Below are positions 10,719 to 20,644 of a stretch of 23,867 nt of DNA, piece after piece. The DNA is from a virus. A program made the position numbers and the translations under genes. Where the stretch lies: IMG/VR virus record IMGVR_UViG_3300046777_001092, positions 1 through 23,867 of that record. One strand, 5' to 3'. Under the pieces are notes generated by a model, which was given only the letters and a program-made list of their open reading frames with translations, was not told the DNA's origin and did not search any database. Every line of letters starts with the position of its first letter. Position 1 is the stretch's first letter.

Positions 10719-10727
10719 TTGCCTCAT

Positions 10728-10958
10728 ATGAACCAAGACGAACTTTTCCAAGAAAATGACACTCATATGCGATATGGACCGCCTAAAGAGTTTCTTGAAT
10801 GGCATAAAGAGTTTCTAAAATCCTCAATTTCTGATGGTCCTAATGGTCCTTTTGATTTCAATACTCTTCAGATTGCCCTAAAAGAAACTGAGGAAGAATT
10901 AGATAATTGGCAAGACACTTCCCAAACCGTCACAGGGGTCTCCACAGACCCCCTCTGA
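10728..10958 (+). CDS. Duplicated small protein, copy 1 (76 aa)
   Basis: From the ATG at 10728 the protein starts MNQDELFQENDTHMRYGPPK and is nearly identical to the gene at 11616-11810. At the point where copy 2 ends (TGA), this copy has TCC, so it reads on for 12 residues into the hairpin/promoter cassette (TVTGVSTDPL). A TTG at 10719 is not needed. Acidic helical protein; function unknown. Confidence 0.7.
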   Translation: MNQDELFQENDTHMRYGPPKEFLEWHKEFLKSSISDGPNGPFDFNTLQIALKETEEELDNWQDTSQTVTGVSTDPL

Positions 10959-10969
10959 TGCCCTATAAT
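10935..10969 (+). promoter_or_regulatory. Hairpin plus TATAAT cassette
   Basis: GGGGTCT (10935-10941) and AGACCCC (10946-10952) form a perfect 7-bp stem with a CCAC loop. TATAAT is at 10964-10969. The stem here lies in the C-terminal coding end of the previous gene, because its stop was lost. Confidence 0.7.
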
Positions 10970-10990
10970 AACTTCAGTTCAAACAAACAA

Positions 10991-11188
10991 ATGCCTTCCA
11001 AAAACGGTTTCACTCTCATTGAACTACTGATTGCTTGTGCCATTGGTGGTATTGGTCTTGCCATTCTTGTTGGTATGGTGAATGGGAACTCTATTCTCCC
11101 ATCCAAACAACAGTGTATCAACGGTGGTGGCAAATGGACTGAAGGTATCCAATATGGACGTATGACTCAACTCTGTACTTACAACTGA
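10991..11188 (+). CDS. Prepilin-like membrane protein, 65 aa
   Basis: Start is the ATG at 10991; the frame is open upstream only through the promoter. Residues 4-11 (KNGFTLIE) match a type IV prepilin/pseudopilin cleavage site: Gly at -1, Phe at +1, Glu at +5. A hydrophobic helix (residues 12-30, LLIACAIGGIGLAILVGMV) follows. Then comes a very short C-terminal part with Cys42 and Cys62 and GGGKW. Real pilins are 120 aa or more, so this looks like a mini-pilin or mimic, perhaps processed by the host PilD and able to interfere with host pili. That role is inference. It sits between the two copies of the duplicated gene. Confidence 0.7.
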   Translation: MPSKNGFTLIELLIACAIGGIGLAILVGMVNGNSILPSKQQCINGGGKWTEGIQYGRMTQLCTYN

Positions 11189-11190
11189 TT

Positions 11191-11538
11191 ATGACTAAAG
11201 TGGTTTATAATGCCTGCTACGGTGGGTTCAGTCTCTCTAATGAGGCAATGGATCGTATGGTAGAACTTGGTTATCCTCTGGAATTGAATCCAAAATACGA
11301 TCCAAATGCTAAATCTAAATGTTCGGATGATTCTCAAAAATATGAATGTTGGGGATATGTAGAGTGTGACCGCCACGACCCTATTCTGGTTCAAGTTGTA
11401 GAGGAGTTGAGAGAAAAAGCAAGCGGTCAATGTGCTGACCTTGAGATTACTGAAGTCCACGGTCCTTATCGTATTGAGGAATATGATGGTTACGAAAGTG
11501 TAAAAACTGCTCCTGATTATGATTGGATTACTCCCTGA
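11191..11538 (+). CDS. Conserved hypothetical phage protein, 115 aa
   Basis: Starts two bases after the prepilin-like stop. The sequence MTKVVYNACYGGFSLSNEAM, a DPILVQVVEELREKA helix and a C-terminal ITEVHGPYRIEEYDG motif match a phage protein family I recall (KVVYNxCxGGFxLSxEA... EYDGxE). Cys-containing middle (KCSDDSQKYECWGYVECDR). Function unknown. Confidence 0.72.
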   Translation: MTKVVYNACYGGFSLSNEAMDRMVELGYPLELNPKYDPNAKSKCSDDSQKYECWGYVECDRHDPILVQVVEELREKASGQCADLEITEVHGPYRIEEYDGYESVKTAPDYDWITP

Positions 11539-11557
11539 CACTTTCTAAACTGGCACA

Positions 11558-11592
11558 GGGGTCTCCACAGACCCCTCCTGATGACCTATAAT
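11558..11592 (+). promoter_or_regulatory. Hairpin plus TATAAT cassette
   Basis: Preceded by AACTGGCACA, the stem GGGGTCT/AGACCCC (11558-11564, 11569-11575) is identical to the one at 10935, and TATAAT is at 11587-11592. It starts the unit for copy 2 of the duplicated gene. Confidence 0.7.
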
Positions 11593-11615
11593 AACTTCAT
11601 ACCAAACAACTCCAA

Positions 11616-11810
11616 ATGACCCAAGACGAACTTTTCCAAGAAAATGACACTTATATGCGATATGGACCGCCCAAAGAGTTTCTTGAGTGGCATAAAGAAT
11701 TTCTAGAATCCTCAATTTCTGATGGTCCTAATGGTCCTTTTGATTTCAATACTCTTCAGATTGCCCTAAAAGAAACTGAGGAAGCATTGGGAAATTGGCA
11801 AGACACTTGA
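11616..11810 (+). CDS. Duplicated small protein, copy 2 (64 aa)
   Basis: Product starts MTQDELFQENDTYMRYGPPK. Over 188 aligned bases it differs from copy 1 at about nine positions, so the duplication is recent. It ends at TGA where copy 1 runs on. Acidic helical protein (KEFLEWHKEFLESS). Function unknown; keeping both copies suggests dosage or a recent event. Confidence 0.72.
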   Translation: MTQDELFQENDTYMRYGPPKEFLEWHKEFLESSISDGPNGPFDFNTLQIALKETEEALGNWQDT

Positions 11811-11822
11811 CGAACTGGCACA

Positions 11823-11857
11823 GGGGTCTTCCATGACTCCTCCTAATGCCCTATAAT
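11823..11857 (+). promoter_or_regulatory. Degenerate hairpin plus TATAAT cassette
   Basis: AACTGGCACA leads into GGGGTC (11823-11828) pairing with GACTCC (11835-11840) with one G-T wobble, weaker than its two sister cassettes. TATAAT is at 11852-11857. The leader after -10 (AACTTCAGTTCAAA) is almost the same as that of 10964. Confidence 0.6.
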
Positions 11858-11878
11858 AACTTCAGTTCAAAGAAACAA

Positions 11879-12175
11879 ATGTCTCCAAAGATTTCTATTG
11901 GTAAAGAACAAGCAATTCAGTTCTATGAGACTGAGTGGTGGAAAGATAAATCTTATCGTGAAATTGCTTTTTATCAACTCTTCACAGCAGAACTTATGTG
12001 TCCTTTTGATGTATTTCACGAAGCAGTTGAAAAGTCTCTTGGTCGTCCAGTGTTTACTCACGAATTTGGACTGAATTATGATGGTCTTTGTGAAGAATTT
12101 CTTGGATACCGAAGTGCTCCTTCACTTCAAGACATCATAAATCTTATTCCAGAGGACAAACGAGTTGTTGTGTGA
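11879..12175 (+). CDS. Conserved hypothetical phage protein, 98 aa
   Basis: Chosen ATG (11879) lies downstream of the -10; the frame extends to 11846. The product (AIQFYETEWWKDKSYREIA, CPFDVFHEAVEKSLGRPV, THEFGLNYDGL, DIINLIPEDKR) has the pattern of a small family widely seen in cyanophages in my memory: FYE.EWW, H..(E)(A)...LGRPV(F/W)THEF. No biochemical role is known. Confidence 0.75.
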   Translation: MSPKISIGKEQAIQFYETEWWKDKSYREIAFYQLFTAELMCPFDVFHEAVEKSLGRPVFTHEFGLNYDGLCEEFLGYRSAPSLQDIINLIPEDKRVVV

Positions 12176-13268: not shown

Positions 13269-14174
13269 ATGAAGAACCTTCACCTTGAGCACCCCGAAGA
13301 CACCATCCTGAACGGTGATTTGACCGTGCTGGATTGGTTCGTGACTGCTGGTAATCTCAGCGTCAAGATTGACGGTGCTCCTGCAATCGTATTCGGCACG
13401 AATCCTGAGAATGGTGATTTCTTCGTGGGCACGAAGAGCGTATTCAACAAAAAGAAAATCAAGATTTGCTATACTCAGGAGGACGTGTTTGCTCTGTATG
13501 ATGAGGCAACCCACGCTAGTCTGATTGAGATTCTGTGTGCCTGCCTGAAGTATCTGCCCCGCATTAGTGGCATCGTACAGGCAGATTTCATCGGTTTCGG
13601 TGGTTCCGATGAGTACAAACCGAACACCATTACCTATAAGTTCCCTGCAACTGTTCGCCACAACATCATCCTGGCACCTCACACCGAATACTATACCGAA
13701 ACCACGATGCAGGATGCGATAGCATCTCCGATTGTGGGTCAACTTGATGATACCGACTTCGTGAAGTTCGTGAAACCTCAGGCATACATCCTGCACAATC
13801 AGGATAGTTTCGCTGATGTTGAAGAGGTGTGCAACTTCGCCCGCCAGATGGCACAAATGGTGACGTTCGTTGATGGTAAGAAACTGGCGGAAATCAAGAA
13901 ACAAATCAACGCTTGTATTCGCTCTGGTGTTAGTGTTGACCCTGAGGACTTTGATTGTGACCCTAACCTGATTCGTTTCTGGAAACTGGTAAAGAGTATC
14001 AAAGAGGATTGCCTGTTCCTGTGCCGTAATGACGGTCCCGAAGCATACATCGGGCACGACCGTATTGATGCCGAAGGTTATGTAATGGCGAATGAGTTTG
14101 GTATGTTCAAACTGGTGAATCGTGAGTCCTTCAGTTATGCCAACTTCACCAATATAAAGGCATGGAATAAATAA
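13269..14174 (+). CDS. Nucleotidyltransferase (ligase/capping)-motif protein
   Basis: 301 aa. It has KIDGAPAIVFG (Lys33 in KxDG, motif I, where ATP ligases and capping enzymes carry the covalent nucleotide), FFVGTKS (possible motif III/III-a region), and near the C-terminus AEGYV (Glu269-Gly270, motif IV) followed by FKLV (Lys281, motif V). All three sites are in the right order. The family resembles an uncharacterised cyanophage protein (DUF6267-type by memory). If functional it would adenylylate or guanylylate a nucleic acid end or a small molecule. Overall similarity to a known ligase is not evident, so substrate is unknown. Higher G+C and CTG-rich codons than upstream genes. Lies just before two capsid-targeted genes. 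Confidence 0.65.
   Translation: MKNLHLEHPEDTILNGDLTVLDWFVTAGNLSVKIDGAPAIVFGTNPENGDFFVGTKSVFNKKKIKICYTQEDVFALYDEATHASLIEILCACLKYLPRISGIVQADFIGFGGSDEYKPNTITYKFPATVRHNIILAPHTEYYTETTMQDAIASPIVGQLDDTDFVKFVKPQAYILHNQDSFADVEEVCNFARQMAQMVTFVDGKKLAEIKKQINACIRSGVSVDPEDFDCDPNLIRFWKLVKSIKEDCLFLCRNDGPEAYIGHDRIDAEGYVMANEFGMFKLVNRESFSYANFTNIKAWNK
14166..14173 (+). promoter_or_regulatory. Late-promoter-like AATAAATA
   Basis: AATAAATA overlaps the stop codon of the ligase-like gene and lies 13 bases before the ATG at 14186. Same octamer as before the 14391 gene; both downstream products look like virion internal proteins, which are late products in T4. Together these support late promoters. Confidence 0.5.
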
Positions 14175-14185
14175 AAACAAAAAAC

Positions 14186-14353
14186 ATGAAGACGTTCTTT
14201 CAGTTTCTTGAGGATATTGATAAACTCAGATCCTATGAAAAGACAAGACATGAAGATGATACTTATCAATCATCGGTACAAAGACTACAGAATCCAAGAC
14301 TCAGGAAACTGAGAAGATATTTAAATAAAGAGATCGGAAGGTTTACCGTTTGA
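14186..14353 (+). CDS. Small protein with capsid-targeting-like N-terminus, 55 aa
   Basis: Product starts MKTFFQFLEDIDKLRSYEKT. The first ten residues resemble the T4 internal-protein capsid-targeting sequence (MKTYQEFIAE), cut by the gp21 prohead protease after (L/I)xE. Here the site is FLED, so cleavage is uncertain. The rest is basic and charged (QNPRLRKLRRYLNKEI), suiting a DNA-associated head protein. No other evidence. Confidence 0.55.
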   Translation: MKTFFQFLEDIDKLRSYEKTRHEDDTYQSSVQRLQNPRLRKLRRYLNKEIGRFTV

Positions 14354-14356
14354 TAA

Positions 14357-14364
14357 AATAAATA
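14357..14364 (+). promoter_or_regulatory. Late-promoter-like AATAAATA
   Basis: AATAAATA lies 27 bases before the ATG at 14391, immediately after the previous stop. Spacing fits a late promoter with a short leader. Confidence 0.5.
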
Positions 14365-14390: not shown

Positions 14391-15053
14391 ATGAAGACAT
14401 TCGCAGAATTCATTGAAGAAGCAAAAAGAATTAGAATTCTACGCACGGCACATTATACTTCGGCATCAAATAAAGAAAATATTCTCAGATCTGGTTTCAG
14501 AGATTCCCCATCAACTGGTACATATCATCCAGATGATAAAAAAGGAATTGTTTATACCACACCATCATCCAGAGTTGGTAATGACTATGGATCTTCCAGA
14601 GTAAATCTTAGAATTGTCAATCCAAGAATGACGAATACCGATTCTCCAAGAGATTTTGGTAAAAACATCAAAAATTGGATGTCAACGGCATCCGACGAAG
14701 ACATTAGTAATAAAAAAGGAAAACCAACCAGTTCGGTTGACCAGGCAAAGGCAGCATTTAAAAAAGGATCAAAAATAGTAAGAGTTCCCAATGCTCATGG
14801 TGGTTTTACTCCAAAACCAGGACAACCACAAGGATCTTATGTAATGATTGATAAGGATATTGCAAATCGTTCCATTGATAAGAATCCCAAACCAACCATA
14901 AAAACAAAGAATAAACCAAAAAGAGTGCAGACAAAACCAAAACCAAGAATGTCTGGATCACTGGGTAGTTCTGGTTCCTCTTCTGGTACAAAATCATACA
15001 CTCCAGGTGCTGGTGGTAGATTCGGAATTGGTGGAGTTGGACTTGCCGATTAG
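14391..15053 (+). CDS. Capsid-targeted protein with ADP-ribosyltransferase-like domain
   Basis: 220 aa. Residues 1-11 (MKTFAEFIEEA) match the T4 capsid-targeting sequence with an IEE/A prohead-protease site, so the mature protein would start at Ala11 and travel inside the head. Residues about 18-80 look like an ART fold: RTAHYTSASNKENILRSGF (His21-Tyr22 where ARTs bind NAD), GIVYTTPSS (beta strand with Tyr/Ser-Thr) and NDYGSS. This recalls T4 Alt, an ART injected with the DNA, but is much smaller and not clearly homologous. The third ART motif (a Glu or Gln) is not identified. The C-terminal third is Lys/Pro/Ser/Gly-rich and disordered. Confidence 0.65.
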   Translation: MKTFAEFIEEAKRIRILRTAHYTSASNKENILRSGFRDSPSTGTYHPDDKKGIVYTTPSSRVGNDYGSSRVNLRIVNPRMTNTDSPRDFGKNIKNWMSTASDEDISNKKGKPTSSVDQAKAAFKKGSKIVRVPNAHGGFTPKPGQPQGSYVMIDKDIANRSIDKNPKPTIKTKNKPKRVQTKPKPRMSGSLGSSGSSSGTKSYTPGAGGRFGIGGVGLAD

Positions 15054-15067
15054 GACACTTTGACAAC

Positions 15068-15111
15068 TGGCACACAGAGTACCGTCATACACCCCAGTCT
15101 GCCCTTATAAT
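15068..15111 (+). promoter_or_regulatory. GGCACA element plus TATAAT, no clear hairpin
   Basis: TTGACAACTGGCACAC at the start matches the family, but the usual GGGGTCT stem is absent. TATAAT is at 15106-15111, and the ATG at 15141. A weaker or remodelled member of the cassette family. Confidence 0.5.
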
Positions 15112-17964: not shown

Positions 17965-18096
17965 ATGTTCACTTCTGAAGAACTGACGGTCATTTATGAG
18001 ATCCTGGATTCTCATAAGAATTATGTTGACGATGTAGAACTTGAGGTGCTAATTCGGGAGATTCTGAATAAGATTCACTATGACCTGACACCCTGA
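17965..18096 (+). CDS. Small acidic helical protein, 43 aa
   Basis: The ATG at 17965 is preferred to the GTG at 17896. Product MFTSEELTVIYEILDSHKNY, then DDVELEVLIREILNKIHY. Acidic helical 'EEL..I.E.L' pattern as in neighbours at 20114 and 20645. Just upstream, TATAGTTAG may be a weak -10. Confidence 0.55.
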   Translation: MFTSEELTVIYEILDSHKNYVDDVELEVLIREILNKIHYDLTP

Positions 18097-18100
18097 GAAC

Positions 18101-18134
18101 TGGCACACGGGGTCTTGTGTCCTCATGAGATCCC
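18101..18134 (+). promoter_or_regulatory. ACTGGCACA hairpin cassette A
   Basis: GGGGTCT (18109-18115) pairs with AGATCCC (18128-18134) with one G-T wobble. The loop reads TGTGTCCTCATG. Upstream GGCACAC can instead pair with the loop's GTGTCC. Downstream ACATTG-type -10 is weak. The element begins at the preceding TGA. Confidence 0.65.
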
Positions 18135-18165
18135 TGTTACATTGCATTTGTCCCCGAGAAACCTC

Positions 18166-18348
18166 ATGACTTACAAGGATCTTCTGAGTAATCTGCAAAA
18201 TCTGACTGAGGAACAACTCAATCGTGAGGTGATTCTCTATAACTTTGATGAGGATCTGCTTCTTGATAATGAAGTGACGGAAGTTCGTGTCACCAAGTAT
18301 GATGCTCCAGGACTGATTTCTGCTGGTACACCTTACATTGTGTTCTGA
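18166..18348 (+). CDS. Hypothetical acidic protein, 60 aa
   Basis: The ATG at 18166 was chosen; the frame opens upstream inside the cassette (18115). Product MTYKDLLSNLQNLTEEQLNR, then acidic beta-rich (FDEDLLLDNEVTEVRVT). Possibly an 'EEQLN.eV' binding protein. Stop TGA starts cassette B. Confidence 0.6.
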   Translation: MTYKDLLSNLQNLTEEQLNREVILYNFDEDLLLDNEVTEVRVTKYDAPGLISAGTPYIVF

Positions 18349-18360
18349 CACTTCAGAAAC

Positions 18361-18403
18361 TGGCACACGGGGTCTTGTGTCCTCATGAGACCCCTGACAT
18401 ACT
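18361..18403 (+). promoter_or_regulatory. ACTGGCACA hairpin cassette B
   Basis: GGGGTCT (18369-18375) and AGACCCC (18388-18394) form a perfect 7-bp stem; the right-hand base change relative to cassette A (AGATCCC to AGACCCC) restores pairing. CATACT at 18398-18403 is a possible -10. Confidence 0.7.
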
Positions 18404-18428
18404 TACATCGTTCACCACTCACAACACC

Positions 18429-18887
18429 ATGGGAACCCGCTCTCGCATCGGTTATGAACTCCCCGACCACTCTGTGATCTCTGTCTACTGTCATTGGGAT
18501 GGTTATGTAGAGCACAATGGTAAGATCTTGGTAGAGCACTATCAGAACCGTGATGATGTCATGGACCTTATTGATGGTGGTTCTATGTCATCTCTTCGCA
18601 CTCGTTCTACCTGGACTACTGGTAGTGCTCTTCGTGATGATGCTGGAGAGTATATTACTGATGATAATGGTTATCTGATGTATGAGAATGATCGTGAACC
18701 TCAACCACTGTATCATTCAGAGCGTGGTGATGGTGAAGAACCTTGGCACTCTATTTTTGATGACTTTGTGGCAGGTCATTCTTGTGAAGAGTATGCTTAC
18801 CTGTATGACCTGAATGGTAACTGGAAAGCATTTAAACTGGATTCTACTGTAGAACCCATTGAGATTCCTAGTTGTGTTACTGCCTAA
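18429..18887 (+). CDS. Conserved 'MGTRSRIG' phage protein, 152 aa
   Basis: The start at 18429 lies after the cassette. Sequence MGTRSRIGYELPDHSVISVY, CHWDGYVEHNGKILVEHYQ, DLIDGGSMSSL, then an acidic middle and a C-terminal domain with EEYAYLYDLNGNWKAF. The MGTRSxI...S.Y.HWDGY...GK.L..HY...IDGG pattern is a widespread phage and bacterial family in my memory, function unknown. Well-formed gene. Confidence 0.8.
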   Translation: MGTRSRIGYELPDHSVISVYCHWDGYVEHNGKILVEHYQNRDDVMDLIDGGSMSSLRTRSTWTTGSALRDDAGEYITDDNGYLMYENDREPQPLYHSERGDGEEPWHSIFDDFVAGHSCEEYAYLYDLNGNWKAFKLDSTVEPIEIPSCVTA

Positions 18888-18905
18888 GAGTCTTTAAGTA
18901 TCTTA

Positions 18906-18952
18906 GAGTAGACTAGACCCTTATCTTCAACGGGGACAAACATAGTCTACTC
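18906..18952. repeat. 10-bp inverted repeat before 18978
   Basis: GAGTAGACTA (18906-18915) is perfectly complementary to TAGTCTACTC (18943-18952). Inside, GACCC and GGGGAC may also pair. A T-rich stretch follows. Either a terminator or a regulatory structure for the gene at 18978. Confidence 0.6.
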
Positions 18953-18977
18953 ATCTTTTCCATTCTTGTCAAGTACC

Positions 18978-19196
18978 ATGTCACTCTCCGATAGCACAAT
19001 CAACAACCTTGCCATTGCACTCACTCCTGAGGTGATTGATTCAATTCTTCAGGATGAATCGTGGGCAGAATATCTAACAGAAATCATCCCCGAGATTGTA
19101 TCCAAGAAACTGGGATCTCAGGACATTGATCTAGTCACTGAGATCACTGTGTATATCATGGATAACATCAACATGAAACCCTATCAGACAGTTTGA
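18978..19196 (+). CDS. Hypothetical acidic helical protein, 72 aa
   Basis: ATG at 18978, with TTG at 18966 as a less likely start. Product MSLSDSTINNLAIALTPEVI and two more helical segments (SILQDESWAEYLTEIIPEIV; QDIDLVTEITVYIMDNI). Similar in style to other acidic 50-70 aa proteins here. Function unknown. Stop begins cassette C. Confidence 0.62.
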   Translation: MSLSDSTINNLAIALTPEVIDSILQDESWAEYLTEIIPEIVSKKLGSQDIDLVTEITVYIMDNINMKPYQTV

Positions 19197-19200
19197 CAAC

Positions 19201-19243
19201 TGGCACAAGGGGTCTTGTGTTCTCATGAGATCCCTGCCATACT
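19201..19243 (+). promoter_or_regulatory. ACTGGCACA hairpin cassette C
   Basis: Stem 1 CACAAG/CTTGTG (loop GGGT) and stem 2 GGGGTCT/AGATCCC (19209-19215/19228-19234) overlap, so only one can form. CATACT is at 19238-19243, and the downstream leader TTAAAGAGTTCA is shared with cassette D. Confidence 0.68.
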
Positions 19244-19270
19244 TAAAGAGTTCAGACAGGAACACCCACC

Positions 19271-19447
19271 ATGATTGTTGACATCACCAACTGCTTTCAA
19301 CGCAATCCTGAGATTCTGCAAGACGTTTGTGCTCACCGTGTTGAGATTGCAAACTTCGTGATGAATCTTCTCAACCCAGAGGAAAACTATGATGATGTGA
19401 TGTTCTATGAAAGTGAAATCCGTCATTACAAACTCTATGATGTGTGA
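19271..19447 (+). CDS. Hypothetical acidic protein, 58 aa
   Basis: Product MIVDITNCFQRNPEILQDVC, then HRVEIANFVMNLLNPEENYDD. Helical with acidic C-terminus. Leader after the CATACT element of cassette C is 27 bases long. No known family. Confidence 0.6.
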   Translation: MIVDITNCFQRNPEILQDVCAHRVEIANFVMNLLNPEENYDDVMFYESEIRHYKLYDV

Positions 19448-19470
19448 CAGTCCCTGAACTGTCCACCAGA

Positions 19471-19502
19471 GGGCACCAGGAGACGCTGTGTGCCCTTAGA
19501 AT
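19471..19502 (+). promoter_or_regulatory. GGGCAC hairpin and TAGAAT
   Basis: GGGCAC (19471-19476) pairs with GTGCCC (19490-19495); TAGAAT (19497-19502) follows directly. A cassette variant with a different stem. Confidence 0.55.
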
Positions 19503-19531
19503 GAACAAGTCAACCACAACCACCCGAAACC

Positions 19532-19660
19532 ATGGAAGACACTCTCCTGACCGAAATCATGGATGCTCCTGGTGAGATCTGGGATCTCCCGGAGATGCGT
19601 GATGAGGATGATGATGAAACCACCTGGAACGCTTTTCTGAACTCTAACTGGGACTTCTAG
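19532..19660 (+). CDS. Very acidic protein, 42 aa
   Basis: Product MEDTLLTEIMDAPGEIWDLP, then EMRDEDDDETTWNAFLNSNW. About a third acidic residues. Ordinary leader after the TAGAAT. Likely a real micro-protein because of the flanking cassettes; function unknown. Confidence 0.5.
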   Translation: MEDTLLTEIMDAPGEIWDLPEMRDEDDDETTWNAFLNSNWDF

Positions 19661-19683
19661 GACACCTTACCATCTGGCACACT

Positions 19684-19717
19684 GGGGGTTGACTTTAACT
19701 CCCACCCATGTCATAAT
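19684..19717 (+). promoter_or_regulatory. GGGGGTT hairpin and CATAAT
   Basis: GGGGGTT (19684-19690) pairs with AACTCCC (19697-19703), one wobble. CATAAT is at 19712-19717. Stem follows a TCTGGCACAC element, as in the other cassettes. Confidence 0.55.
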
Positions 19718-19741
19718 TAAACTGTTAATCACCCAACCACC

Positions 19742-19948
19742 ATGCAATTTCAAGTTACCGACATTGAGTTTGATTTCACCTGTGATGATGAAAACAATCT
19801 TCCTACCCTTGGGTATCAGGAAGACATCACAAATGATACTCTCGGACAAATCTGGGAGGCAGATGATGAGGATGATCTGATTGAAGAGATTACCTGTGCT
19901 ACAGGTTGGTGCATCAAGTCCATTGATTATCGTCACGTTCTGAACTGA
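19742..19948 (+). CDS. Acidic protein, 68 aa
   Basis: ATG at 19742 lies 24 bases after the CATAAT. Product MQFQVTDIEFDFTCDDENNL, an acidic helix, and a C-terminal CATGWCIKSIDYRH. The 'Q.DIEFDF..DDE..' pattern is known in cyanophages by memory, without function. The next ATG is one base past its stop. Confidence 0.65.
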   Translation: MQFQVTDIEFDFTCDDENNLPTLGYQEDITNDTLGQIWEADDEDDLIEEITCATGWCIKSIDYRHVLN

Positions 19949-19949
19949 A

Positions 19950-20114
19950 ATGACAAAAACTACTCTGACATTTGAAGAACTGGATGCCATTCTGTCACTG
20001 ATTGAGAATCGCACTTGTGAAGGTTGGTATGAAATGAGTGAGATTACTGGTCTTGATTCTGCTGAATGTTGCGATCTCTACAACAAACTTACCGAAATGA
20101 GGGATGAGGTTTGA
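19950..20114 (+). CDS. Hypothetical helical protein, 54 aa
   Basis: Product MTKTTLTFEELDAILSLIEN, then TCEGWYEMSEITGLDSAECC and a helix. A segment of this type (FEELDAILSLIEN... L.S.E...LY.KL) may be a small helix-turn-helix-like fold; weak. Overlaps the next ATG. Confidence 0.6.
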   Translation: MTKTTLTFEELDAILSLIENRTCEGWYEMSEITGLDSAECCDLYNKLTEMRDEV

Positions 20115-20293
20115 TGACTGAACTCAAAGAGTATCATTTCACTGATGAACAAATCGACCAACTTCTGAGGTTGGTTCGTGGTAAAGCATTTCAGGTGAAG
20201 CATAATCCCCACCCAGAAGATGAGGATTATGATTACAACGAACTTGCTAATCAAATCGAAGACCAAATCGTAAACCACTCTACCAACGACTGA
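20114..20293 (+). CDS. Hypothetical acidic protein, 59 aa
   Basis: The ATG at 20114 overlaps the previous stop; a TTG at 20111 is not needed. Product MTELKEYHFTDEQIDQLLRL, then an acidic 'HPEDEDYDYNELANQIEDQI'. Helical and very acidic. Followed by two bases then the next ATG. Confidence 0.62.
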   Translation: MTELKEYHFTDEQIDQLLRLVRGKAFQVKHNPHPEDEDYDYNELANQIEDQIVNHSTND

Positions 20294-20295
20294 TT

Positions 20296-20574
20296 ATGTA
20301 CCGCACTCTTTCTGAACTTCGTAACACCATCAATCGGATGATTGAGAGTCAAGGTGAGAACGCACCGTGTGCCGCATTTGTATTCACTGGGCACGATGTG
20401 TTTGAGTTTGATGAAGAGGACAATCAAGAGAAGTATTTTTCTACATTGTTCACGCAAGATGTACTTGCTGATGTAGGTGGAAGTTCGTACATTTATGAAC
20501 AGGTTGGTGAAATGATTGATGATGCTATTCGTTTGCGTAAGAAGGGTATGGAACTCTACCGTGAGACGTTCTGA
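20296..20574 (+). CDS. Hypothetical protein, 92 aa
   Basis: Product MYRTLSELRNTINRMIESQG, then CAAFVFTGHDVFEFDEEDNQ and a helix at the end. The pattern 'L..I..mi...G...P.Aa.v.t..Dv' recalls the DUF/'YvcO-like' phage proteins, but I cannot assign it. Acidic middle. Stop begins cassette D. Confidence 0.65.
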   Translation: MYRTLSELRNTINRMIESQGENAPCAAFVFTGHDVFEFDEEDNQEKYFSTLFTQDVLADVGGSSYIYEQVGEMIDDAIRLRKKGMELYRETF

Positions 20575-20578
20575 GAAC

Positions 20579-20621
20579 TGGCACAAGGGGTCTTGTGAAC
20601 CACCAGGATCCCTGCCATACT
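20579..20621 (+). promoter_or_regulatory. ACTGGCACA hairpin cassette D
   Basis: Stem 1 CACAAG/CTTGTG (loop GGGT) is perfect. Stem 2 GGGGTC (from 20587) with GATCCC (to about 20612) has one wobble and a remodelled loop. CATACT is at 20616-20621 followed by the TTAAAGAGTTCA leader shared with cassette C. Confidence 0.65.
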
Positions 20622-20644
20622 TAAAGAGTTCAAAAGGACACCTC

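What the first reader, a model, noticed from the sequence alone, without database searches (positions are those of the whole stretch)
14391..15053. Capsid-targeted ADP-ribosyltransferase-like protein
The first 11 residues match the T4 internal-protein targeting sequence with an IEE/A prohead-protease site, and the next 60 residues look like an ART fold (HYT, VYTTPS). Seen directly: motifs and a late-promoter-like octamer upstream. Known: T4 Alt is an injected ART. Inference: this phage packages a small toxin-like enzyme that modifies the host at infection.
Basis: partly seen in the sequence, partly recalled or inferred. Interest (0 to 1): 0.75.

Follow-up and report, generated by a model that had tools for sequence, protein, structure and literature searches.

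The report
Cyanophage capsid-targeted ADP-ribosyltransferase-like protein
A virus of cyanobacteria carries a small protein that has the "pack me into the virus head" tag known from phage T4 and the fold of enzymes that attach ADP-ribose to other molecules, so it is probably injected at infection to alter the host, although one usual catalytic residue is missing.

Summary
The ORF at 14391-15053 (220 aa, T4-like cyanophage) begins MKTFAEFIEE|A. It has the residues T4 needs for capsid targeting (4, 7) and processing (8, 10). A query of the downstream domain alone found 38 viral loci; all 27 distinct upstream sequences carry this tag or its cleavage site (shuffles 0.09%). The domain spans about residues 15-165, not 60 residues. 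Sequence libraries miss it, but a confident model (pLDDT 86, pTM 0.81) matches only ADP-ribosyltransferases (ARTs) among the 50 listed PDB hits, each weakly (best E 0.009). Shorter relatives in the same kind of gene cassette match RNA 2'-phosphotransferase (E 4e-5) and polyvalent-protein ARTs (E 3e-5). H21 and Y55 are conserved, but the usual third acid is absent (S149/Y150), so catalysis is unproven. It is not of T4 Alt's R-S-E class. Neighbouring genes in relatives are also tagged, including GNAT acetyltransferases. In cyanophage S-CREM2, five of five N-terminally tagged genes are in the published virion proteome, among them SAM hydrolase, kinase and NMNAT-like enzymes. Best reading: a head-packaged, injected ART-fold effector in a swappable cassette, in phages thought to lack Alt. 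Packaging likely; fold well supported; target unknown.

The parts
14391..15053 (+). CDS of the capsid-targeted ART-like protein, 220 aa (mature about 210 aa, pI 10.5)
14391..14423 (+). T4-type capsid targeting sequence MKTFAEFIEE|A; predicted prohead-protease cut after Glu10 (between 14420 and 14421)
14430..14885 (+). ART-fold domain, about residues 14-165; H21 at 14451-14453, Y55 at 14553-14555, third-motif position S149/Y150 at 14835-14840
   Evidence: AlphaFold2 pLDDT 86.4, pTM 0.81; Foldseek; conservation
14886..15050 (+). basic low-complexity tail (residues 166-220), variable among relatives, ending GGRFGIGGVGLAD in some
14357..14364 (+). late-promoter-like AATAAATA (NATAAATA class) 26 nt before the ATG
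14186..14353 (+). second small gene (55 aa) starting with a CTS, MKTFFQFLED; position 10 is Asp, which in T4 still targets but blocks processing
   Evidence: PMC9026906
14167..14173 (+). late-promoter-like ATAAATA 12 nt before the second tagged gene (overlaps the end of the DUF6267 gene)
13269..14174 (+). DUF6267 gene (T4-like cyanophage gene, 467 phage records) that borders the tagged cassette here and in related loci

Best explanation
The gene encodes a late-made, head-packaged and injected effector with an ART fold. Its first 10 residues target it to the prohead core of a T4-like cyanophage. The gp21-type prohead protease cuts after Glu10. The basic mature protein (about 22.6 kDa) stays with the DNA and enters the Synechococcus-type host with it. 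There it uses NAD+ (pocket with H21 and Y55) to modify a host macromolecule, or acts on NAD+ or nucleic acid, in the first minutes of infection. Step by step: tag shown by sequence; packaging inferred from the tag and from tagged proteins detected in another cyanophage virion (about 0.85); ART fold predicted (about 0.85); NAD-dependent chemistry inferred (about 0.55); injection and host target inferred by analogy with T4 Alt and T4 internal proteins.
For: Tag: F4/F7/I8/E10 meet the mapped T4 CTS determinants; 27/27 distinct upstreams of the main family and 7/7 of the short family carry it or its cleavage site, although the queries excluded it; fusions keep a cleavable F[IL]xEA/S immediately before the ART domain. 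Protease: Peptidase_S77 (PF03420) in two related uncultivated contigs, G001 E 2e-37 and G003 E 5.5e-36. Packaging analogy: in S-CREM2 all 5 annotated CDS with an N-terminal tag (gp6 SAM hydrolase, gp13, gp14 APH-like kinase, gp136, gp154 NMNAT-like) are among the virion proteins (52 of 219 CDS; hypergeometric 6.5e-4, regex drawn partly after seeing N-termini), and gp12 (Cas9-like) has an internal one. Fold: pLDDT 86.4, pTM 0.81; all 50 listed PDB matches are ARTs (NatT, diphtheria toxin, ExoA, PARPs), probability up to 0.97; viral PARP/ART-PolyVal entries to E 7.8e-5. Sequence: short relatives match KptA (NCBIfam E 4.2e-5) and polyvalent ARTs (hhalign E 3e-5); main to short family E 1.9e-7 with L019 as bridge. 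Constraint: dN/dS 0.15-0.23 in the domain. Late promoter.
Against: No Pfam, PHROG, NCBIfam or PDB sequence hit for the window protein itself. PDB fold matches are individually weak (best E 0.0094, TM about 0.45). The E/D/Q of H-Y-[EDQ] ARTs is S149/Y150 here, so the enzyme could be inactive. Direct hhalign to the polyvalent ART profile is weak (3.4%). No isolated phage carries it, so there is no virion data. S-CREM2 proteomics came from CsCl preparations whose authors did not exclude contamination.
Confidence: 0.6

Rival explanations
1. Packaged ART-fold protein that is not a transferase: a degenerate domain that binds NAD+/ADP-ribose or a host protein and blocks a defence (as T4 IPI* blocks a restriction enzyme), or only sequesters a signal.
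For: Third acidic residue absent in the main family (S149 and Y150) and in the short one (S/T/V); T4 IPI is a CTS-tagged anti-restriction protein (PMC9026906); small basic protein (pI 10.5) like T4 internal proteins.
Against: H21 and Y55, the NAD-binding residues of the fold, are strictly kept, unusual for a dead enzyme; acid-less ARTs of the H-H-h clade and some mono-PARPs (own knowledge) are active; relative L019 keeps a Glu near the position (GSEVIQ).
Confidence: 0.22
2. KptA/Tpt1-like activity: the domain ADP-ribosylates nucleic acid (RNA 2'-phosphate, or 5'-phosphate ends of RNA or entering DNA) rather than protein.
For: Short relatives match RNA 2'-phosphotransferase models (E 4.2e-5 to 0.026) and often carry H instead of Y in motif 2 (VHAST), as in the H-H-h clade, which needs no third acid; the neighbouring DUF6267 protein shows a KIDG motif reminiscent of nucleic-acid ligases (seen directly; not tested).
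Against: The window protein has Y, not H, in motif 2 and lacks the N-terminal half of KptA; matches cover about 50 residues and are far below curated cut-offs (23 against 231 bits).
Confidence: 0.1
3. The N-terminal helix is not a packaging tag in these phages; the protein acts inside the infected cell and its likeness to the T4 CTS is convergent.
For: The window is a fragment without head genes; no virion data for this phage; ATAAATA is not enriched in the window as a whole.
Against: The exact T4 determinants are kept in 34 distinct upstreams, on unrelated domains (ART, GNAT, others), and S-CREM2 tagged proteins are in virions.
Confidence: 0.08

Closest known systems
T4 internal proteins IPI, IPII, IPIII (CTS-tagged, injected)
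   Same: Same 10-residue tag determinants and L/I-x-E cut; small basic protein; phrog_2667 'internal head protein' matches N-termini of relatives (E 7e-4 for L018).
   Different: Carries an ART-fold domain; T4 IPs do not.
T4 Alt (injected ADP-ribosyltransferase, Alt/VIP2 R-S-E clade)
   Same: Same idea: an ART in the head, processed by gp21, injected to act on the host at once.
   Different: Different ART class (H-Y rather than R-S-E), a third the size, different CTS type, different gene context; cyanomyoviruses were described as all lacking alt, modA and modB (PMC2984593).
Polyvalent-protein ARTs (Tox-ART-HYD2, Pfam ART-PolyVal PF18760)
   Same: H in strand 1, aromatic in strand 2, phage-packaged; related profile for the short family; GNATs occur in both systems, and the tagged GNAT matches PLxRFG/DarB-type polyvalent proteins.
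   Different: One domain per protein, each with its own cleavable tag, instead of one giant fusion; D/E of the active site missing; no PF18760 hit.
KptA/Tpt1 RNA 2'-phosphotransferase (H-H-h ARTs)
   Same: HGT motif and following helix and strand of the short relatives match; no third acid needed.
   Different: No N-terminal KptA lobe; the window family has Y in motif 2.

Membership tests
T4-type CTS-tagged internal head proteins | N-terminal tag with targeting residues at 4 and 7 | tested here: met
   F4 and F7 invariant in alignment A2 and in 23 of 27 main-family N-termini plus 7/7 short ones; determinants from PMC9026906
T4-type CTS-tagged internal head proteins | gp21 cleavage motif L/I-x-E at 8-10 | tested here: met
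   I8-E9-E10|A11; F[LIVMF]xE[ASGV] in 34/34 distinct upstreams
T4-type CTS-tagged internal head proteins | gp21-type prohead protease in the phage | tested here: met
   PF03420 in related contigs G001 and G003; the window itself is a fragment without head genes
T4-type CTS-tagged internal head proteins | late expression | tested here: inconclusive
   AATAAATA 26 nt upstream; ATAAATA before 16/68 tagged ORFs against 29/527 other ORFs; the control set is mechanical ORFs; no expression data
T4-type CTS-tagged internal head proteins | presence in the virion | not testable with these tools
   no isolate; only analogous proteins of S-CREM2
ADP-ribosyltransferase superfamily (fold) | split beta-sheet ART core | tested here: met
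   confident model, all 50 listed PDB hits ARTs, best E 0.0094, probability up to 0.97, BFVD E 7.8e-5
H-Y-[EDQ] ARTs (PARP, DT, Tox-ART-HYD2) | His in strand 1 and Tyr in strand 2 | tested here: met
   H21 27/27 covered, Y55 28/28
H-Y-[EDQ] ARTs (PARP, DT, Tox-ART-HYD2) | acidic or Gln residue as third catalytic residue | tested here: not met
   GSYVMID: S149 28/28, Y150 27/28; only L019 has a Glu there
Pfam ART-PolyVal PF18760 | match over the curated cut-off | tested here: not met
   no hit for 28 members, while the RPP1 prototype passes
T4 Alt/VIP2 (R-S-E ARTs) | R-S-E active site | tested here: not met
   H21/Y55 pattern instead; no R-S-E ART among the 50 listed PDB hits
KptA/Tpt1 (H-H-h) | second His and full-length match over the cut-off | tested here: not met
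   window protein has Y55 and no NCBIfam hit; short relatives reach 23 of 231 bits
ART enzymes generally | NAD+-dependent activity | not testable with these tools
   needs an assay

The most novel reading that the evidence does not exclude
T4-like cyanophages, thought to lack T4's Alt/Mod system, deliver a swappable arsenal of individually CTS-tagged enzymes (acid-less ART, GNAT acetyltransferase, and in S-CREM2 SAM hydrolase, kinase, NMNAT-like and a Cas9-like nuclease). This works like a polyvalent effector taken apart into separately packaged pieces, and the ART uses an H-Y active site without the usual acid to modify a host or nucleic-acid target.
Probability: 0.35. Interest if true: 0.85.

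Novelty: new variant of a known kind. Interest (0 to 1): 0.64.

Why it matters
A review of cyanomyoviruses states that all lack alt, modA and modB and that early transcription is therefore thought to use an unmodified host polymerase (PMC2984593). A tagged ART of a different class in some of them makes that directly testable. The tag also offers a simple explanation for puzzling enzymes in cyanophage virions (SAM hydrolase, kinase, NMNAT-like), which the S-CREM2 authors could not separate from contamination, and a sequence rule to predict injected effectors across T4-like cyanophages.

Tried and rejected
First AlphaFold2 run on the full protein with 17 sequences: pLDDT 51, no fold match; replaced by the trimmed domain with 28 sequences. 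Pfam, PHROGs, NCBIfam and PDB sequence searches of the window protein: nothing. Cellular genomes: none of 127 pattern matches encodes a relative, so a host gene or prophage origin is not supported. Isolated phages: none carries it. The weak hit to a Roseobacter phage RNA polymerase is a T7-like enzyme and was judged chance. hhalign of A6 to A8 (E 9e-16) is inflated because L019 is in both and is not used; searches are. A catalytic role for S149 as an invariant residue was considered but not claimed: the register of the last strand is uncertain between S149 and Y150. Phylogeny was not built.

Full report
What is there. The window is a 23,867-base IMG/VR record of a T4-like cyanophage: the gene at 13269-14174 (DUF6267, PF19782 E 3e-77) has relatives in 467 phage records, almost all Synechococcus or Prochlorococcus phages, the nearest S-SRM01 of Kyanoviridae. 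Directly downstream lie a 55-aa gene starting MKTFFQFLED (14186-14353) and the target gene starting MKTFAEFIEEA (14391-15053).

The tag. In T4 the first ten residues of IPIII suffice for packaging; residues 4 and 7 mainly target and residues 8 and 10 are needed for processing by gp21, which cuts after L/I-x-E (PMC9026906). The window protein has F4, F7, I8 and E10, followed by Ala. To test linkage without circularity I searched viral contigs with an alignment that starts after the tag (A4). It found 38 loci; 27 distinct upstream sequences all carry the tag or its cleavage site, 23 as a true N-terminus and 4 as an internal site in a fusion just before the ART domain, against 0.09% in shuffled sequences. 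Seven of seven shorter relatives found with a tag-free query also have it. A gp21-type protease (PF03420) is present in two related uncultivated contigs.

Does the tag mean packaging in cyanophages? The S-CREM2 paper lists its virion proteins with coordinates (PMC10665884). I read their N-termini and scanned the whole genome. The annotated genes with an N-terminal tag are gp6 SAM hydrolase (MKDFDSFLEE), gp13 (MKDLHSFLTE), gp14 APH-like kinase (VKRFDAFLTE), gp136 (MQTFSMFFSE) and gp154 NMNAT-like (MKNFSSFLTEA). All five are in the virion list of 52 out of 219 (6.5e-4; the regex was widened after I had seen virion N-termini, so this is optimistic). The virion Cas9-like gp12 has an internal RFASFMAEA. 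The paper does not mention a targeting tag and leaves contamination open.

The domain. Sequence libraries do not recognise it. With 28 relatives, AlphaFold2 gives pLDDT 86.4 and pTM 0.81. Foldseek against the PDB lists 50 best matches, all ADP-ribosyltransferases: NatT, diphtheria toxin, exotoxin A, an anti-CRISPR (6kyf, from memory AcrIF11, itself an ART), and many PARPs, with probability up to 0.97 but E-values no better than 0.0094. Viral models include PARP-like and ART-PolyVal proteins down to E 7.8e-5. Shorter relatives (HGT motif) lie next to tagged GNATs or, in L069 and L079, right behind the main ART gene. They match RNA 2'-phosphotransferase, an ART (NCBIfam E 4.2e-5), and the polyvalent-protein ARTs of N4-like phages (hhalign E 3e-5). 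Main and short families are related by profile (E 1.9e-7 with L019 as bridge; 4.9e-4 and 2.6e-4 without). H21 and Y55 are invariant. The last-strand motif reads GSYVMID where PARP1 reads NEYIVYD (own knowledge), so the catalytic acid is replaced by S149 or Y150; L019 alone has a Glu. Purifying selection is clear in the domain (dN/dS 0.15-0.23) and looser in the basic tail.

Surroundings. Related loci hold two to four tagged genes in a row behind DUF6267: a Pro-rich protein, proteins with internal KTFxxFMxEA sites, the ART, and GNAT acetyltransferases (Pfam E 7e-9, over the cut-off). The GNATs have tagged homologues in S-CRM01 and B23 and untagged homologues inside PLxRFG/DarB-like polyvalent proteins. 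ARTs, GNATs and kinases are also the protein-modifying domains of polyvalent proteins (PMC5512222), and ARTs are often head-packaged in myoviruses (PMC9503650), a survey whose main text does not mention cyanophages. The late-promoter motif ATAAATA stands within 80 bases before 16 of 68 tagged ORFs and 29 of 527 other ORFs (p 7e-6; the controls include spurious ORFs).

Mechanism and its limits. Shown: tag, linkage, constraint, predicted fold. Inferred: packaging, cleavage after Glu10, injection, NAD chemistry. Unknown: target. T4 Alt offers the model of action but is of another ART class; a review states that cyanomyoviruses lack alt, modA and modB (PMC2984593). I therefore file it as a CTS-tagged internal protein with a divergent ART-superfamily domain, not as an Alt, ART-PolyVal or KptA member.

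Noticed in passing
S-CREM2 OR473000 (L039-L042): gp6, gp12, gp13, gp14, gp136, gp154: Non-structural virion enzymes (SAM hydrolase, APH-like kinase, NMNAT-like, Cas9-like) carry T4-type capsid targeting sequences that the paper does not mention.
   Followed up: partly
L014, L015, L016, L017, L018, L058, L060, L077, L078, L087; S-CRM01 SCRM01_185 (L037:6001-6396); B23 gp252 (L038:5001-5393): CTS-tagged GNAT acetyltransferases, related to GNAT domains in PLxRFG/DarB-like polyvalent phage proteins.
   Followed up: partly
L011:3047-4306, L054, L058, L065; L004:4330-5004, L005:2319-3173, L010:3862-5001, L016:2892-4040: Fusion proteins with internal KTFxxF(I/M)xEA sites, which look like polyproteins that the prohead protease would cut into pieces.
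   Followed up: no
L069:4513, L079:4504: A second, shorter CTS-tagged ART-like gene (HGT motif) directly behind the main one: tandem paralogues.
   Followed up: partly
L015:92-1480, L016:4600-5286, L062:4916, L074:4964: Another CTS-tagged family without Pfam hit (YYxPDEKLPSGKTP ... KVRHGADNP ... LYxRxGFG), sometimes duplicated within one protein.
   Followed up: no
L078:3176-3547: CTS-tagged protein with a HELVH zinc-peptidase-like motif (weak SprT-like and MPTase-PolyVal matches).
   Followed up: no
window 13269-14174: The DUF6267 protein shows KIDG, DFIGFG and EGYVM motifs that recall nucleic-acid ligases (nucleotidyltransferases); no PDB sequence hit.
   Followed up: no
window 18084-20632, 10914-11874, also about 15054-15110: Repeated intergenic elements GACACTT..AACTGGCACA..GGGGTCT..TATAAT/CATACTTA, probably a repeated early promoter or leader; one copy-like stretch follows the ART gene.
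   Followed up: no
window 10725-11001 and 11613-11889: 277-nt direct repeat, 90% identical: duplicated small gene MNQDELFQENDTHMRYGPPKEFLEWHKEFL.
   Followed up: no
L033:1701-2789, L035:2653-3000: Repeated motif (Y)LFVEGYADNVRSAEVMAMNISEDWVNEIL in proteins beside the tagged ART.
   Followed up: no
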